DNA of 45,002 nucleotides from positions 1 through 45,002 of the IMG/VR virus record IMGVR_UViG_3300031566_006752. One strand, given 5' to 3'. Shown here piece after piece: positions 14,726 to 42,708 of the stretch. Source of the stretch: a virus. Numbering within the stretch: position 1 is the first letter of the stretch; the number at the start of each line of letters is the position of its first letter. The position numbers were made by a program, and so were the translations under genes. Under the pieces are notes generated by a model. That model made no database searches, was not told the origin of the DNA, and worked only from the letters and a program-made list of their open reading frames with translations.

Positions 14726-16402
14726 TTATATCTCGATAGCGTTTATAGCATCGATGACTTCGTTGATATTTACTTCCATTTGTGGAATTTTTTCGTAAAT
14801 ATCTTGAGTGTATCCGTAAAGACGGAATACCTTTTGTCCACCCTTTATAGGAGCGGTTGTTGAATATCCAACAACATCAATCAAGTAAACGTATGGGGTT
14901 CCAAACTTGTTTACATACTTCTTGAAGTTGTCTTCAACTCTACTGTATCCATCTTGCATGTCAGAGATTATTACAACTCTGTCATACTGAGTGTTATTAT
15001 CTGCGAACAGATTGAAGCAAGACGCAAAGTCAGTACCGTGACTACACTTTCCGTTGTAAGAAGTAAACTTCTTCTTCAGAGTGTTAACAGAATCAGTTGG
15101 GTTCCATCCAGTAATCTTTTCAGACCATGATGCAAAGTGATAAACATCACCTCCGATGCCCTTTGCAAAAGTAGCGGCAACTAGTGCAGCCTTCTCAGCA
15201 GGGGTTGAGCTGGATCTCTTACCACCTGGAAGCGCAACGCCTCTACCAGTCATAGAACCAGATGTATCGAATACAACTGCAGTTCTACCTTCAGGAAGCA
15301 ATTCCTTAAGGTTTGGAATGGAAGCTTCATACGCCTTTCCAAGCGCATCGGCAACCTTAGCCAATTGACGACCGTTGAATTCAAGAAGCATAACTTCAAG
15401 AGCAAGGTCAATTTGGTGTGGCCATACAAGTGACTTCTTAATGAACTTAGGTTCAATAAGCAATTCACACGCAGCATCCAATAGAGGAGTATCATTAGTC
15501 TTAAGAATGTTTCTCAAGTTACGAAGCAATGCCAAGTAACCAATCTTCTTAGTCTTGATAAGTTCCGCATAGTTTTCAGTCTTTTGTTCAACGAGAACCT
15601 TTTCAGCTTCCGCCTTAGTGATTTCGCCTGACTTAACTGCTTCTGCAACCTTCTTACCAGTTTCAGTGTTCTTATCTTCAACAGTATTGAACTGCTTTAG
15701 GATTCCAAGAACAAGAGCACGAAGTGCAGGAACTCTTACAGTTCCTTCAACAACTTCGTTGAATGTGTCCTTTTCGAACTTTGTACCAACAATAGCCTTG
15801 ATGTAATCTGCAGTTGGTACATCAACGTAGCCATTCTTTTCAGTTGGAACTGGGTGAACAGCGTTAACGATGTCAACCAAACTCAAAGTGCTAGACTTCA
15901 TTTGGTACTTAGCAAGTTCGTACGCATCAGCGTTTTCAATAGCGCCCTTGAAACCTCTCTTCATGGCACCTGGAATGGTATTGGTCTTATTCTTCGCACG
16001 GTAGCACGCAAGAATTTCCATCATATCGTCAAGACGATAGATTATACCACCTTCGTTGCCCTTACGGTTTCTCTTAGAGAAGAATCTCTTTCCAAGTTCA
16101 TCACCAGAAAGGTGAGGCAATAGATTAACCGCTCCAACGTGGGTAACGGATCTTTGACCGAATACGCTACGTGCATAGACGAGTGCCTTTGCAGCAAAGA
16201 GCTTATCTTTCTTCGCGATGGTATCAATAACTTCGCGCAAACGAGTTTCGCGTTCTGATTCCTTTTCATAAAAGGTATTCTGGATTCCTGTGGATAGGAT
16301 TCCTACGAGTTCATGTTCTGGTCTTTGGGTTTGACCGGATCCACCTTGGTGAGTAGTAGTCTTTTGAACTACAGGTTCTCTCTTTTGATTGTACTTAGAC
16401 AT
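14726..16402 (-). CDS. Ro60/TROVE-family RNA-binding protein
   Basis: 558 residues, full length. An N-terminal TROVE helical-repeat ring (about residues 25-365; note RSVFGQRSVTHVGAVNLL and LLRNLRNILK) is followed by a von Willebrand A domain with the metal site DTSGS (379-383) and later SHGTD and ISDMQDG. Ro60 proteins bind Y RNAs and misfolded RNAs. A strong Shine-Dalgarno (AAAGGAGG) precedes the ATG, unusual among neighbours, and the gene is visibly less AT-rich. It is flanked by terminators at 14692-14717 and 16442-16476, with candidate partner RNAs just upstream. Confidence 0.9.
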   Translation of the reverse strand: MSKYNQKREPVVQKTTTHQGGSGQTQRPEHELVGILSTGIQNTFYEKESERETRLREVIDTIAKKDKLFAAKALVYARSVFGQRSVTHVGAVNLLPHLSGDELGKRFFSKRNRKGNEGGIIYRLDDMMEILACYRAKNKTNTIPGAMKRGFKGAIENADAYELAKYQMKSSTLSLVDIVNAVHPVPTEKNGYVDVPTADYIKAIVGTKFEKDTFNEVVEGTVRVPALRALVLGILKQFNTVEDKNTETGKKVAEAVKSGEITKAEAEKVLVEQKTENYAELIKTKKIGYLALLRNLRNILKTNDTPLLDAACELLIEPKFIKKSLVWPHQIDLALEVMLLEFNGRQLAKVADALGKAYEASIPNLKELLPEGRTAVVFDTSGSMTGRGVALPGGKRSSSTPAEKAALVAATFAKGIGGDVYHFASWSEKITGWNPTDSVNTLKKKFTSYNGKCSHGTDFASCFNLFADNNTQYDRVVIISDMQDGYSRVEDNFKKYVNKFGTPYVYLIDVVGYSTTAPIKGGQKVFRLYGYTQDIYEKIPQMEVNINEVIDAINAIEI

Positions 16403-16441
16403 AATTGCCTCCTTTCATTAATTAAATTTATACTAAAATAA

Positions 16442-16476
16442 AAAAGCCCGAGTGACGTGTGTCTTCTCGGGCTTTT
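16442..16476 (-). terminator. Strong terminator upstream of the TROVE gene
   Basis: Perfect arms AAAAGCCCGAG and CTCGGGCTTTT around a 13-nt loop, followed by TTATTTT on the minus strand. It closes the transcript that contains the two covarying repeats and separates it from the TROVE gene. Confidence 0.85.
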
Positions 16477-16518
16477 GTAATCCAAATAATCGTAATAAAA
16501 TGGAATATAAAGTTAGTC

Positions 16519-16603
16519 GAGAAAATTGGTGAGAGTTTTTCTGTCTGGCTTTCGCCTGATCTTTCTTATGGTTGAAACGAAGTATCTCTTACCTTACTAC
16601 AAC
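16519..16603 (-). ncRNA. Candidate Y-like RNA element, copy 1
   Basis: On the minus strand it starts GTTGTAGTAA and ends AATTTTCTC, exactly as copy 2. Inside, arms GGTAAGAG and CTCTCACC pair (one A-C mismatch). The variable middle holds a GGC-GAAA-GCC tetraloop hairpin. A boxA-like GTTCTTTA lies 18 nt upstream and a strong terminator about 43 nt downstream. It sits next to the Ro60 gene, as bacterial Y RNAs do. The Y-RNA identity is inference. Confidence 0.5.
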
Positions 16604-16640
16604 AGTGCTTTTCAATATTTTAAAGAACAAAAATTTTGTT

Positions 16641-16702
16641 GAGAAAATTGAGCAGAGTATTTTTTCATTTTTCCTACGAAGTAACTCTATTCTTACTACA
16701 AC
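16641..16702 (-). ncRNA. Candidate Y-like RNA element, copy 2
   Basis: Same ends as copy 1. Its arms are GAATAGAG and CTCTGCTC. Against copy 1 one outer pair changes G-C to A-T and another A-C to T-G, so pairing is partly kept while sequence changes. The middle is shorter and lacks the tetraloop hairpin. Confidence 0.5.
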
Positions 16703-16713
16703 TAAATTTTATA

Positions 16714-18312: not shown

Positions 18313-18329
18313 TCACATCCTTCTGGTCG

Positions 18330-18403
18330 CGATCCCAGCGGGACTCGAACCCGCGACGCTTGCTTTTAGAGAGCAACGCTCTGACCAACTGAGCTATGGG
18401 ACC
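18330..18403 (-). tRNA. Suppressor tRNA, anticodon CUA (reads UAG)
   Basis: Cloverleaf is complete: acceptor GGTCCCA/TGGGATC, D-stem GCTC/GAGC, anticodon stem TTGCT/AGCAA, T-stem GCGGG/CCCGC. The 7-nt loop is CTCTAAA, giving anticodon CTA with U33 and A37, the same loop as the classical supF suppressor. The variable arm is short, so it is not a Tyr or Leu type. Amino-acid identity cannot be read with certainty. Confidence 0.85.
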
Positions 18404-24800: not shown

Positions 24801-24881
24801 AGGTAGTTAAATTTAACAATACAGTCTAACCCACGATCGTTGCTGCAACTGCACCCCATTCAGCTTTTGGGTGTTAAATAG

Positions 24882-25099
24882 AGACGGGGGACGGATTCGA
24901 ACCGCCGACCTCCAGGTTGTTGTACTTCCTCCTTACCTTCAAATCTCTTTTTTACAATTACCAGGGAGCGACCCCAGATCAAGCAAAATGACCTAAATGA
25001 TGATTTATCAGAAGTATCGATACCCATACTTAAAGCTTAATGCATGCTCTTTAAGATGTCATCGATCCTGACGCTCTGTCCGGGCTGAGCTACCCCGCC
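24882..25099 (-). tRNA. Interrupted tRNA with about 143 nt in the anticodon loop
   Basis: The 5' part is acceptor GGCGGGG, D-arm GCTC-10nt-GAGC and stem TCAGG. The 3' part is stem CCTGG, T-arm GGCGG-TTCGAAT-CCGTC and acceptor CCCCGTC. All stems pair. Between TCAGG and CCTGG lie 150 nt instead of 7. The insert forms local hairpins, such as CTTAAAG-GC against GC-TTTAAG, and TAAAT-CATC-ATTTA. The expected terminal G of a group I intron is not at the right place and 143 nt is short for that class. The anticodon cannot be read. Confidence 0.6.
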
Positions 25100-25282
25100 A
25101 TTCGTATTTCAGAACTCCAGAACGGAGCACCGTGGAACCTTTCCTCACTTTCATAAATATCGGTCTACCACACATTTGGGTAACAACTCCCAATGCGAAC
25201 TGTTTCGTCTGCCCAGGTTGCCTTAACGGCTGGCTTACTTATCAGTTCAGGCTATTAACAACACAACAAAGAACGTTAACTG
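25100..25282 (-). other. Structured leader of the interrupted tRNA
   Basis: No gene. A boxA-like GTTCTTTG (25267-25274) begins it, and hairpins such as CTCC-GTTCT-GGAG follow. It joins tRNA-Tyr to the interrupted tRNA. Confidence 0.3.
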
Positions 25283-26560: not shown

Positions 26561-26588
26561 TTAATTAAAAAAGTAGAGAAAATTTAAG

Positions 26589-26671
26589 AGTGTATTGAGG
26601 ATTTGAACCCCGTGTCCCGAAGGACGCCTGTTTTTCAGACAAGTGTGTATACCAATTTCACGATGAAACAC
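26589..26671 (-). tRNA. Class II tRNA with GAA anticodon, degenerate
   Basis: Loop CTGAAAA in stem CTTGT/ACAGG gives GAA (Phe), but a long variable arm (GTCC-TTCG-GGAC) and D-arm AAATTGG follow the Leu plan. Acceptor and T-stem contain mismatches. It may be a Leu tRNA with altered anticodon. Confidence 0.55.
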
Positions 26672-26693
26672 TACTTAGTTACTACTACTATTG

Positions 26694-29432: not shown

Positions 29433-29505
29433 ACGGTCACGGGAATCGAACCCGTACCTATACCCCTAATGGGTAGTGACTTGCCATTTGTCCATTCCGG
29501 CAGTG
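29433..29505 (-). tRNA. Degenerate tRNA-like gene, possible TTA anticodon
   Basis: T-arm ACGGG-TTCGATT-CCCGT is perfect. The anticodon hairpin pairs as TACC/GGTA around loop CATTAGG; a central reading is TTA, but U33 is A. The acceptor ends pair poorly. Identity uncertain. Confidence 0.4.
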
Positions 29506-29514
29506 TTGATTCAG

Positions 29515-29595
29515 TTACCCTGAGAGGAATCGAACCTCTGTCTCCGGGGCCAAAACCCGACGTGTTGTGCTTGCGCTCCTTTATACTACAGGGCA
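29515..29595 (-). tRNA. tRNA-Gln(TTG) with 9-nt D-loop insertion
   Basis: Acceptor TGCCCTG/CAGGGTA, anticodon arm TCGGG-TTTTGGC-CCCGG, T-arm AGAGG-TTCGATT-CCTCT. The D-loop holds GCGCAAGCA after GGA; the insert can fold as GC-GCAA-GC. Confidence 0.8.
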
Positions 29596-29734: not shown

Positions 29735-29860
29735 TGGGGAAGGTTGGAGTTGAACCAACTGACTTTAGTATTTCAAACTAACGTTTAACCGATGAAACTC
29801 TATGCGTTACTATGAAGAAATTCAAGAAAATTGCGAGAGCATTTTTAAAACTTCTTCCCC
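29735..29860 (-). tRNA. tRNA-Phe(GAA) interrupted by 53 nt after the acceptor strand
   Basis: Acceptor GGGGAAG (29860-29854) pairs 7/7 with CTTCCCC (29742-29736). D-arm GTTT-CATCGGTT-AAAC, anticodon arm TTAGT-TTGAAAT-ACTAA and T-arm GTTGG-TTCAACT-CCAAC are perfect. Between base 7 and base 10 there are 55 nt instead of 2. The 5' strand begins 4 nt after tRNA-Gln, so the placement is tight. Confidence 0.75.
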
Positions 29861-29864
29861 ATTG

Positions 29865-29937: not shown

Positions 29938-29976
29938 ATTTGCACGTCTTTCCGTGCTGTCAATCATTTCGATCCC

Positions 29977-30091
29977 AAATGGATGTTTACCGCTTACACT
30001 AATTGAACTTTAACGACAATGCTAATGATGCATTGTGCGGTTCAATGATGGATTCGAACCATCCTCCCATTATTTTGAGATGTCCATTCAG
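29977..30091 (-). tRNA. Candidate circularly permuted tRNA 1
   Basis: On the minus strand the 3' part comes first: AATGG, T-arm GATGG-TTCGAAT-CCATC, acceptor ATTGAAC (30046-30040). After 31 nt holding hairpin CAATGC/GCATTG comes the 5' part: acceptor GTTCAAT (30008-30002), TA, D-arm GTGT-9nt-ACAT and CCATT. Acceptors pair 7/7 and CCATT/AATGG 5/5. The break falls in the anticodon loop, so the anticodon is unclear. An alternative local hairpin CATTT/AAATG exists in the 5' part. Confidence 0.55.
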
Positions 30092-30164: not shown

Positions 30165-30200
30165 ATTACAAACTGAGAAAATTGACTAGAGATATTTTAT

Positions 30201-30285
30201 CGTGCTACCAATTACACTAATCCCGCATAAACATGGAGCGGGACCCAGGATTCGAACCTGGACTAATCGTTCCCAAAACGAAGTA
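30201..30285 (-). tRNA. Candidate circularly permuted tRNA 2, anticodon TGG
   Basis: Minus-strand order: anticodon arm TTCGT-TTTGGGA-ACGAT, T-arm CCAGG-TTCGAAT-CCTGG, acceptor GTCCCGC (30244-30238), then TCCA and 7 nt, then acceptor GCGGGAT (30226-30220), TA, D-arm GTGT-AATTGGTA-GCAC and G. Acceptors pair 7/7 (one G-U). The loop is identical to both normal Pro tRNAs. The break lies between D-arm and anticodon arm. The bases after the acceptor read T-CCA, as if a CCA end were encoded. The D-arm itself resembles tRNA-Gln. Confidence 0.65.
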
Positions 30286-30304
30286 ACTCTTGGTCGTTAC
30301 TACA
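30286..30304 (-). other. Hairpin before permuted tRNA 2
   Basis: GTAAC-8nt-GTTAC on the minus strand directly precedes the anticodon arm. It could mark the 5' processing site. Confidence 0.35.
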
Positions 30305-30312
30305 GTCTATAG

Positions 30313-39747: not shown

Positions 39748-40317
39748 TTATCTCTTCGCCCAGGGCAACCGTGTAATAAAATCATAATAGGATCGAATTA
39801 TTTGATCGTGACCCCACGCCCAATCGTAATGATGCAAATCTTCAATGTGTACCCATTTCATTTTTCCTACTTCTCCTTCAATCTCGTTATTATCAGCGTG
39901 TAATACAGGAAACCACCTTTGTTTAGTGTATAAACCATATCTCAGTGATACATTTTGTTTATTGTTATCGGTGGGATTTGTTTGAACGTGCCATGGTTGA
40001 TCGATGTTAACGCTATAAACCTGAATAGCGTCCTCAATCATATTGGATATATTGATGCCAACTTCTTCCCAGGTTTCCCGTATGAGCGCATCTGTACCTG
40101 ATTCATCATAATCAAGATATCCAGCGACGTTATTCCATAATCCGATATTATCTGCCGCATTTTTACCTCGTTCAGAAACAAGTGCGTATGGTCCTGGACT
40201 ATCAAAATCTATAACATCTATAAGTATTACACCATTGACAGCAACGCTTCTGCTTTCCCAGATTATTCTTCCGTCTTTAACTTTGTGCCATTTATTTGGC
40301 GTATTATTGAATGTCAT
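39748..40317 (-). CDS. Nudix hydrolase
   Basis: 189 residues. The Nudix box is GYLDYDESGTDALIRETWEE then VGI (66-88). Such enzymes cleave nucleoside-diphosphate linkages; the substrate is unknown. It overlaps the ligase gene by 4 nt. A link to NAD+ metabolism is possible but not shown. Confidence 0.88.
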   Translation of the reverse strand: MTFNNTPNKWHKVKDGRIIWESRSVAVNGVILIDVIDFDSPGPYALVSERGKNAADNIGLWNNVAGYLDYDESGTDALIRETWEEVGINISNMIEDAIQVYSVNIDQPWHVQTNPTDNNKQNVSLRYGLYTKQRWFPVLHADNNEIEGEVGKMKWVHIEDLHHYDWAWGHDQIIRSYYDFITRLPWAKR

Positions 40318-41612
40318 ACGTCTCTCCCTTCATTATAAATTGCTTTTACTGTTGGAAACCTTAAACTTATTTCTCCGTGTTGATTTACGGTTTCTTCAAA
40401 ATATTGAACCGTTATTTCCTTGCCCACAATTCTGTCAGGGTATTTGTAGAAATACTGGCGTTGTTCAATTGAAAATCCAGATCCAACCGAAACTGGGTAT
40501 CCTTTATGTTCTATCCAGACACTCCTGACCATATCCTCGGTGACCTCCAGGCCGTCAACTATGATCCTAAATGGACCAATATCAATGTCCTGTACAATGT
40601 ACTCGGCGTCAAAAAACTGCTTACATTTAAGAAGATTGTTTGATCTCTTTCCCTCATATGGAGCGTCCTTACGTATCATAATTCCTTCCCATCCATTCTT
40701 TTGGGCCATTGTATTTAGTTCGGTCAAGTGTTCACCTGACTCAACTTTCCATTGTTCAACGTGGCTAAGAACATCTCCATAATAATTATCCATCATAAAC
40801 CTGATAAACTTTTGTCTTTCTGATGAAATTTGAGAGCTGTACTTCTTTTGAAAATGATCAAGATCTAACAAATCAAATATCTTAAACCGGGGATTTTGAA
40901 TGGTGTGATCTTTTTTATTGTATTCCTTTAAGATAGCCTGGAAATCTTCGTCTCCGTTTTCGTTTACTATACATAATTCACCATCAAGCACAGTATCTAT
41001 TAAATTTAAAGGTAACAATGCTTCTTTTACTTTATCAAGTGTAAGAAATTCATTACCGTTTCGAGAGTATGCTTTGATGCTTCCGTCGTGATCGATAATT
41101 ACAATACATCGAACTCCATCAAGTTTCCTACTAGCATACCAAGTATCCTTTTTAAAATCCACCTTCTTCACCATCTTCTCATCATACTTATTTGCCAACG
41201 CGACATCAAATGTAGGAATAAGATCAGGGAAAACTTTGTTTATGATTTTCTCAGACACCCTCGTTTTAAGGTTACGATCAAATATATTAAGAATGATTTC
41301 TTTATATTCAATATTATCTCTGATAAATGCATTGACATCGGCAATAGCTTCGTGCCCCGTTATTCTTCTATTTCCAAGATCGTCCAATAAATCTAGAATA
41401 TCTTCATGAGATTGACGTGATACCAAATCAGATCTTTTGATTATATTCTTTGGGGTTACATAATATTGTACGAATGGGTTATGAGTAGCTTTCAAAATGG
41501 CCTTTATGAATTCTGTATCATATTCAGGCTTTGAAAGTGTAGCAGTTTTTTCGAGTGTTGAATTCGAAACATTGAGCTCATCAATGAGCTGTTTGAGAAG
41601 ATTAAATTCCAT
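40314..41612 (-). CDS. ATP-dependent DNA ligase
   Basis: 432 residues. Motif I is SRKLDGVR (adenylated Lys163), motif III region VLDGELCI, motif IV EGIMIRK, motif V LLKCK. An N-terminal helical domain (1-140) and a C-terminal OB domain follow the T4/cellular ligase plan. An RNA ligase reading is less likely. Confidence 0.85.
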   Translation of the reverse strand: MEFNLLKQLIDELNVSNSTLEKTATLSKPEYDTEFIKAILKATHNPFVQYYVTPKNIIKRSDLVSRQSHEDILDLLDDLGNRRITGHEAIADVNAFIRDNIEYKEIILNIFDRNLKTRVSEKIINKVFPDLIPTFDVALANKYDEKMVKKVDFKKDTWYASRKLDGVRCIVIIDHDGSIKAYSRNGNEFLTLDKVKEALLPLNLIDTVLDGELCIVNENGDEDFQAILKEYNKKDHTIQNPRFKIFDLLDLDHFQKKYSSQISSERQKFIRFMMDNYYGDVLSHVEQWKVESGEHLTELNTMAQKNGWEGIMIRKDAPYEGKRSNNLLKCKQFFDAEYIVQDIDIGPFRIIVDGLEVTEDMVRSVWIEHKGYPVSVGSGFSIEQRQYFYKYPDRIVGKEITVQYFEETVNQHGEISLRFPTVKAIYNEGRDV

Positions 41613-42708
41613 ATCTTTGTTTTCTTATTTTTAGTAACAGATCATCTAAAAGTTCTTGATCTATGTCTTTTGGTAAATCACATTCATCATAAACCTTATC
41701 GAGTTCTTCGATCATCGCCTCTGCTTCTTTAACGAGTTTGTCATATTCATATTCTCCTCGTCTTATCTCCATAAGAATTTTTATTTCTTCATCGGGTCTG
41801 CGAACGTTGATAAATTTGATCTTTGGGATTTCCAATGCAACATTCAAAAGACGAAATGTATGCATCATATTTTTGGAATCGTAATTTTTTCCGTGAGACT
41901 TATTCATCTTAACACGATCAGGGTTTCTTTCTTTCAGCCACGTTTGATATTCCTTATATCTTTTGCAATGTGTTGAGTACGCGTCCTTATTAAATATAAG
42001 GTATCCAATAACCATTAATCCTTTGGGAATGGAAGTTAACTGTACATCATTTGCTGTAACAGGATCAGAAACTATGCCGCTTCCTTCGTGTCTACGGTGA
42101 AGTTGATACATTGCATAAACATCATGTGCGTGGTCAACTTTTGCTAAACCAAAATCTCTTTGATCTATAGTATCTAACGTTCCAGATTGGTAGTACCTGT
42201 TAAAGTATTCATTAAGAGTGATTGAACCTCCTTCTTGAAGAACATAACAGAAGTCCAATACATTCTTACGAGTCATCTGTGATTCTTCCCAGTTCATCTT
42301 CTTGTTATACCCTTTGGCCTTTTTGATTTGATCGATAGCATATCCAGCAAAGGAGTAACGACACGTTTTCGTTAGAAATTTTGATGCGTGATAAGAAATG
42401 GATCCCCATTCTGTAGAATCGTGTTGAACACAATCTTCCGGGGCAAAAAGCAGTTCAAGAACTGTTGGGTTGTTTGTGCGAACAAGAGCAAGAAATCTAC
42501 TAAGTTCGTAGTAGACGATATCATTTAAGTCGTCTGCAACCTGCTCAACATACCCATGTTTGAGTATGTCTTCCAACGGTTGCACAAAAACTCCTCGCAA
42601 ATCTGTGTCGGATGTCGGTAACGATGTCCCATATGCATGGGATCCCATTATTGCTTCGAAGATAATTAAATCTTCGTCTTTTAAATATTGTATCGTGTAG
42701 TTTTTCAT
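41602..42708 (-). CDS. RlaP-family nucleotidyltransferase (predicted RNA repair)
   Basis: 368 residues. The polymerase-beta-type site is GSHAYGT (22-28) with SDTDLRG (33-39); NNPTVLELLF and YSFAGYA follow as in RlaP/MJ1435-like proteins. The family is predicted to act in RNA repair, adding nucleotides to cleaved RNA. It overlaps the ligase gene. It fits the tRNA-rich theme of this phage. Confidence 0.8.
   Translation of the reverse strand: MKNYTIQYLKDEDLIIFEAIMGSHAYGTSLPTSDTDLRGVFVQPLEDILKHGYVEQVADDLNDIVYYELSRFLALVRTNNPTVLELLFAPEDCVQHDSTEWGSISYHASKFLTKTCRYSFAGYAIDQIKKAKGYNKKMNWEESQMTRKNVLDFCYVLQEGGSITLNEYFNRYYQSGTLDTIDQRDFGLAKVDHAHDVYAMYQLHRRHEGSGIVSDPVTANDVQLTSIPKGLMVIGYLIFNKDAYSTHCKRYKEYQTWLKERNPDRVKMNKSHGKNYDSKNMMHTFRLLNVALEIPKIKFINVRRPDEEIKILMEIRRGEYEYDKLVKEAEAMIEELDKVYDECDLPKDIDQELLDDLLLKIRKQRYGI

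What the first reader, a model, noticed from the sequence alone, without database searches (positions are those of the whole stretch)
16519..16702. Two covarying repeats beside the Ro60 gene: candidate Y-like RNAs
Copies share both ends, differ in the middle and keep a stem through compensating changes (G-C to A-T; A-C to T-G). They follow a boxA-like element and end at a strong terminator, next to the gene whose cellular homologues bind Y RNAs.
Basis: partly seen in the sequence, partly recalled or inferred. Interest (0 to 1): 0.8.

Follow-up and report, generated by a model that had tools for sequence, protein, structure and literature searches.

The report
Phage Y RNAs beside a Ro60 gene
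A large bacterial virus carries a gene for the RNA-binding ring protein Ro60 and, beside it and in its tRNA cluster, at least four small RNA genes with the stem by which Ro60 grips its partner "Y RNAs"; two of them are stripped-down versions without the tRNA-like part of known bacterial Y RNAs.

Summary
On the minus strand (the TROVE strand), 16636-16704 (B) and 16514-16605 (A) share one RNA architecture: outer stem, single bulged U, two pairs, YRA, inner stem, UACUUCG, variable loop, then the 3' strands. A covariance model from 14 other phage units, with no window sequence, finds only these two places in 45 kb (E 1e-8, 3e-4). A wider model (58 sequences, none from the window) adds C 30170-30308 and D 26571-26690 in the tRNA cluster. 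Across relatives all 17 pairs show compensatory changes. It finds 190 units in 80 viral TROVE loci, all on the TROVE strand, against none in 518 kb of control phage loci. The module also lies beside TROVE genes of bacteria and of cultured crAss001. Copy C has the permuted tRNA-like domain of YrlA, the known bacterial Y RNA; A and B lack it, so they are minimal Y RNAs, a variant of a known kind. Most likely A and B bind the phage Ro60 ring as gates or stabilisers, while C and D could also tether a tRNA-binding partner. Expression and binding are untested. The boxA-like element lies between B and A; a strong terminator follows A.

The parts
16636..16704 (-). Y-like RNA copy B, minimal form: outer stem, bulged U, AG/CU, UAA, inner stem, UACUUCG, 19-nt A-rich loop, AAUUUU linker
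   Evidence: R1 51.7 bits E 1e-8; R2 60.7 bits E 8e-12; neither model holds window sequence
16514..16605 (-). Y-like RNA copy A: same stem, 42-nt interior with a small GGCGAAAGCC hairpin and no tRNA-like domain
   Evidence: R1 30.6 bits E 3e-4; R2 53.8 bits E 3e-10
16613..16629 (-). boxA-like element TGTTCTTTAAAATATTG, 23 nt before copy A
   Evidence: motif enriched 15-29 nt before Y units: 14 copies, 1.0 expected
16436..16476 (-). strong intrinsic terminator (AAAAGCCCGAG...CUCGGGCUUUUUU) between copy A and the TROVE gene
   Evidence: fold -19.8 kcal/mol, z -7.4
14726..16402 (-). TROVE (Ro60/Rsr-like) protein, 558 aa, with DxSGS MIDAS-type motif and K165 and H183 aligned to human Ro60 K170 and H187
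   Evidence: PF05731 E 9e-8; AF2 pLDDT 85; Z 22.6 to D. radiodurans Rsr 2nvo; residue alignment
30170..30308 (-). Y RNA copy C: same Ro stem around a circularly permuted tRNA-like domain (T arm, acceptor, D arm), YrlA architecture
   Evidence: R2 45.5 bits E 3e-8; RF02553 matched full length 18.5 bits E 0.007, below gathering 69; sequence
26571..26690 (-). Y-like RNA copy D: Ro stem in the place of an acceptor stem around a tRNA-like body in normal order, UUUCAUCG replacing UACUUCG
   Evidence: R2 42.4 bits E 1e-7; best relaxed stem score in the window, 30 against a maximum of 22.5 in six shuffles
29735..29862 (-). tentative copy E: tRNA-Phe-like sequence with a circularly permuted Ro stem inserted before the D arm
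   Evidence: pattern found nowhere else as well formed in 1.76 Mb, 0 in 1.78 Mb shuffled; sequence

Best explanation
A and B are phage-encoded Y RNAs: small trans-acting RNAs whose paired ends form the binding stem for the phage's own Ro60 (TROVE) ring. Shown by comparison: the stem, its conservation and covariation, its genomic link to TROVE, and that the same stem carries the YrlA-type tRNA-like domain in copy C and in many relatives. Inferred: both are transcribed towards TROVE, with a boxA-like antitermination site ahead of A, and end at the terminator before the gene; the bulged stem docks on the outside of the ring. Inferred with less certainty: the minimal RNAs A and B act as gate or stabiliser only (occupying the RNA-entry surface and stabilising Ro60), whereas C and D, with tRNA-like bodies, tether the ring to a tRNA-binding partner (PNPase in Deinococcus). 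The phage could then switch one ring between tasks in RNA decay or repair during infection.
For: Independent model finds A and B only, and C and D with the wider model. Covariation in all 17 pairs (14 of 17 in the smaller set). R1: 58 of 58 hits on the TROVE strand; R2: 190 of 190, in 73 of 80 viral TROVE loci; zero hits in 518 kb of phage loci chosen by other genes. In seven whole bacterial genomes 16 of 17 hits lie at the TROVE locus. In 296 Bacteroidota genomes the 5 with hits are all among the 24 with TROVE, and TROVE-flank searches give 32 hits. YrlA matches coincide with these units and with copy C. TROVE model matches Rsr and Ro60 structures, including Ro60 of Thermus phage phiLo. Gate and tether roles are known for D. 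radiodurans Rsr/Y RNA (PMC8394870; PMC6340977).
Against: No expression or binding data. Folding energies of A and B alone are ordinary. The Rfam YrlA gathering score is not reached anywhere here. Known Y RNAs have a bulged C (PMC4030889); here it is U. Seven of 80 viral TROVE loci gave no hit, some of them truncated. R2 was trained on hits from some of the same loci, so that count is partly circular; the control and the window tests are not. The proposed gate/tether division between short and tRNA-like forms is inference.
Confidence: 0.85

Rival explanations
1. The repeats are a cis-acting leader (attenuator or protein-binding autoregulatory site) in the 5' region of the TROVE mRNA, by which Ro60 controls its own synthesis.
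For: They lie directly 5' of TROVE with a terminator between; 71 of 101 distinct units in relatives lie within 600 nt 5' of TROVE.
Against: Other units lie 3' of TROVE or kilobases away (15 units 3', 9 more than 1.5 kb 5'), as in crAss001 and window copies C and D 10-14 kb away; many carry complete tRNA-like domains.
Confidence: 0.08
2. They are decayed or decorated phage tRNA genes, or processing signals of the tRNA array, with no Ro60 partner.
For: The window has a tRNA cluster and several units hold T and D arms; C and D lie inside the cluster.
Against: A, B and about half of all units have no tRNA feature; the conserved and covarying part is the stem, not the tRNA; control phage loci gave no hit, while bacterial genomes show them at TROVE loci.
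Confidence: 0.04
3. Mobile repeat (MITE-like) or chance duplication with a DNA-level function.
For: Two similar copies in tandem with shared ends.
Against: Compensatory changes in every pair, fixed strand relative to TROVE, no dispersal.
Confidence: 0.01

Closest known systems
YrlA, bacterial Y RNA-like RNA (Rfam RF02553; Salmonella, D. radiodurans and others)
   Same: Gene beside the Ro60/Rsr gene; 5' and 3' ends form a stem for Ro60; copy C has the tRNA-like domain with the T arm before the D arm and matches the model over its full length
   Different: Scores below the Rfam cut-off; UACUUCG (UUUCAUCG in D) where the Rfam consensus has AUGCUU; A and B lack the tRNA-like domain; D has a tRNA-like body in normal order
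Animal Y RNAs (RF00019)
   Same: Outer stem with a single bulged base, short internal loop, inner stem, large variable loop; partner is Ro60
   Different: Bulged U instead of the conserved C; no Rfam match; no La-type ending tested
Ro60/Rsr proteins with solved structure: D. radiodurans Rsr 2nvo, human Ro60 9nen, Thermus phage phiLo Ro60 9l5y, TROVE 9kop
   Same: Whole-length fold match Z 18-23; human K170 and H187 equivalents present (K165, H183)
   Different: 13-23% identity; phage of another clade
YrlA reported in phages (Sim and Wolin 2018, as cited by PMC7765460)
   Same: Phage-borne Y RNA
   Different: Minimal, tRNA-less forms and tRNA/Y chimeras were not described in the papers I could read; the primary papers were not held

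Membership tests
Y RNA (general) | 5' and 3' ends pair into an interrupted stem conserved by covariation | tested here: met
Y RNA (general) | bulged cytosine in the stem (PMC4030889) | tested here: not met
   a single bulge is present but it is U in A-D and in nearly all relatives
Y RNA (general) | gene associated with a Ro60/TROVE gene | tested here: met
Y RNA (general) | physical binding to Ro60 | not testable with these tools
   needs pull-down or gel shift
Y RNA (general) | expressed as a discrete small RNA | not testable with these tools
   terminator and boxA-like site present, no transcript data
YrlA (RF02553), copy C | tRNA-like domain (T, acceptor and D arms) inside the stem | tested here: met
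YrlA (RF02553), copies A and B | tRNA-like domain inside the stem | tested here: not met
   19- and 42-nt interiors without T or D arm
YrlA (RF02553) | Rfam gathering score of 69 bits | tested here: not met
   C 18.5 bits; relatives up to 50 bits
Ro60/TROVE protein | TROVE domain by Pfam | tested here: met
   PF05731 32.1 bits, cut-off 23
Ro60/TROVE protein | ring plus VWA fold of solved Ro60/Rsr | tested here: met
   Z 22.6 to 2nvo over 426 residues
Ro60/TROVE protein | Y-RNA-contacting histidine (human H187) | tested here: met
   H183 aligns with H187; the function of H187 is from PMC4030889

The most novel reading that the evidence does not exclude
Large phages use one Ro60 ring with a set of exchangeable RNA adaptors: bare gate RNAs (A, B), permuted tRNA mimics (C), and chimeras in which the Ro60-gripping stem replaces or is inserted into parts of a tRNA (D, E). 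Together these would present tRNAs or tRNA-binding enzymes to the ring, for example to repair or sequester tRNAs cut by host anticodon nucleases alongside the phage's RlaP and ligase genes.
Probability: 0.2. Interest if true: 0.85.

Novelty: new variant of a known kind. Interest (0 to 1): 0.62.

Why it matters
The role of Ro60 and Y RNAs outside Deinococcus is a long-standing open question. Here the module appears as a compact set in viruses, including the cultured crAss001 in Bacteroides intestinalis, so gate and tether functions can be separated experimentally: minimal Y RNAs lack the tether. Annotation gains too: these RNAs are missed by Rfam cut-offs and by tRNA finders, although most viral TROVE loci examined (73 of 80) carry at least one.

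Tried and rejected
Rfam at the gathering score found only tRNAs in the window and low-score chance matches in the repeat region. Blastn of the repeat region against plasmids found nothing. Single-sequence folding energy does not separate A or B clearly from shuffles. A MAFFT alignment mixing 8- and 9-pair inner stems was misaligned at the 3' end (A4) and was replaced by A5. Rfam did not identify the long (160-310 nt) units of the L005 type. A first descriptor for the permuted stem missed E because its inner stem is interrupted; a looser one found it. The cis-leader reading was considered and put low because many units lie 3' of or far from TROVE. The primary papers on bacterial Y RNAs (PMC4201824, PMC6047535, PMC6281776) were not held, so whether short Y RNAs were already described there could not be checked. 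No paper on the phiLo Ro60 structure was found.

Full report
What is there. The window (45,002 bases) is a virus record with a tRNA cluster on the minus strand and a TROVE gene at 14726-16402, minus strand. Upstream of that gene on the same strand lie two related units, then a strong terminator, then the gene. In transcription order: B (16704-16636), a boxA-like element (16629-16613), A (16605-16514), terminator (about 16476-16436), TROVE.

Architecture. Each unit reads: outer stem of 4-6 pairs, one bulged U, two pairs (AG/CU), UAA, inner stem of about 8 positions, one base, UACUUCG, a variable interior, then the 3' strands separated by a six-base linker AAUUUU. Copy A and copy B alone give only one clean compensatory exchange and their folding energies are ordinary, so the claim had to be tested on relatives.

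Relatives. TROVE-guided searches gave 80 viral loci, bacterial loci and known phages. The motif UACUUCG with a preceding stem occurs repeatedly on the TROVE strand. A descriptor that also asks for the 3' strands gave 97 units at score 30 or more against 0.7 expected with shuffled 3' regions. In 55 non-redundant units 92% of cells pair, against 57% when 3' arms are exchanged; the 3' arms were chosen by pairing, so that figure is biased upward.

Independent models. R1 was built from 14 phage units without any window sequence. In the window it finds only B (51.7 bits, E 1e-8) and A (30.6 bits, E 3e-4). In 69 other loci it finds 58 units, all on the TROVE strand. Their alignment shows double changes in all 17 pairs and a covariation score of 0.788 against 0.198 in shuffles and at most 0.187 when the pairing is slid; it was fitted to the model, so it leans towards the structure. 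The MAFFT alignment of the 14 training units, not fitted to a structure, gives 0.562 against 0.182. R2, built from those 58, adds C (30170-30308, 45.5 bits) and D (26571-26690, 42.4 bits) in the window's tRNA cluster; the next match has 12.9 bits.

Specificity. R2 finds 190 units at E up to 0.01 in 80 viral TROVE loci, all on the TROVE strand, in 73 loci (part of these trained the model). In 55 phage loci fetched through Clp protease and nicotinate phosphoribosyltransferase genes, or by DNA similarity (L008), it finds none at E up to 1 in 518 kb (one of them, L132, has a weak TROVE-like match). In seven whole bacterial genomes 16 of 17 matches lie at the TROVE locus. In 296 Bacteroidota genomes five have matches, all among the 24 with TROVE; those TROVE flanks hold 32 matches at E up to 1, some only about 70 nt long. 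Cultured crAss001 has one just 3' of its TROVE gene (43.1 bits), a gene reported as early-expressed (PMC8375218).

What it is. Units with tRNA-like interiors coincide with matches to YrlA, the bacterial Y RNA, and copy C matches that model over its full length (18.5 bits, below the cut-off). In C the order is T arm, acceptor, D arm, with the Ro stem where the anticodon arm would be, consistent with the D, T and acceptor arms described for YrlA (PMC8394870). A and B share the stem but have short interiors. Interiors across relatives fall into four sorts: short and tRNA-less, permuted tRNA-like, tRNA-like in normal order, and long structured. The bulged base is U rather than the C of known Y RNAs (PMC4030889).

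The protein. AlphaFold2 on 30 relatives gives pLDDT 85. The best structural match is D. radiodurans Rsr (Z 22.6, 4.4 A over 426 residues), followed by TROVE and Ro60 structures including Ro60 of Thermus phage phiLo. K165 and H183 align with human K170 and H187; H187 contacts Y RNA (PMC4030889).

How it may work. In Deinococcus, Y RNA gates the Ro ring and tethers it to PNPase (PMC8394870, PMC6340977). By analogy, A and B, which lack a tether, would gate or stabilise the phage ring; C and D would recruit a tRNA-binding partner. The same window encodes an RlaP-type nucleotidyltransferase and an ATP-dependent ligase, in line with RNA repair. The boxA-like element, enriched 15-29 nt before Y units (14 against 1.0 expected), suggests transcription under antitermination. 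All of this paragraph is inference apart from the cited facts.

Verdict. Observation confirmed; interpretation supported; new variant of a known kind, mainly for the minimal forms and the tRNA/Y chimeras D and (tentatively) E. Short units also occur beside bacterial TROVE genes, so the minimal form is not a phage invention.

Noticed in passing
window 29735-29862 minus: tRNA-Phe-like sequence (anticodon GAA, encoded CCA) with about 50 nt before the D arm forming a circularly permuted copy of the Ro stem (CUCUCGC AAUUUU CU UGAA-UUUC-UUCA U AG UAA C GCAUAGAG).
   Followed up: partly
window 29950-30090 minus: Another circularly permuted tRNA-like sequence (T arm GATGGTTCGAATCCATC, acceptor ATTGAAC...GTTCAAT, D arm) without a clear Ro stem.
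   Followed up: no
window 24880-25100 minus: tRNA-like halves separated by about 150 nt at the anticodon loop position, a possible intron or insertion.
   Followed up: no
window 29435-29595 minus: Two divergent tRNA-like sequences with enlarged or unusual D arms, not reported by ARAGORN.
   Followed up: no
window 40314-42708 minus: ATP-dependent ligase gene next to an RlaP-family (RNA repair) nucleotidyltransferase gene in the same record as TROVE.
   Followed up: partly
L005 2625-2920 and similar places in L051-L072, L079, L084, L089, L092: Long (160-310 nt) interiors inside the Ro stem with conserved blocks (e.g. GGUGAAAAAGUCCG, CUAUCGGC) and no Rfam match: a possible new structured domain.
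   Followed up: partly
L010 1830-4712 (Arthrobacter phage Atuin): Five R2 matches, all on the TROVE strand, between the tRNA genes on both sides of the Ro-like gene.
   Followed up: no
window 18329-18403 minus: ARAGORN calls a tRNA with CUA anticodon (labelled Pyl), a likely amber-reading tRNA.
   Followed up: no
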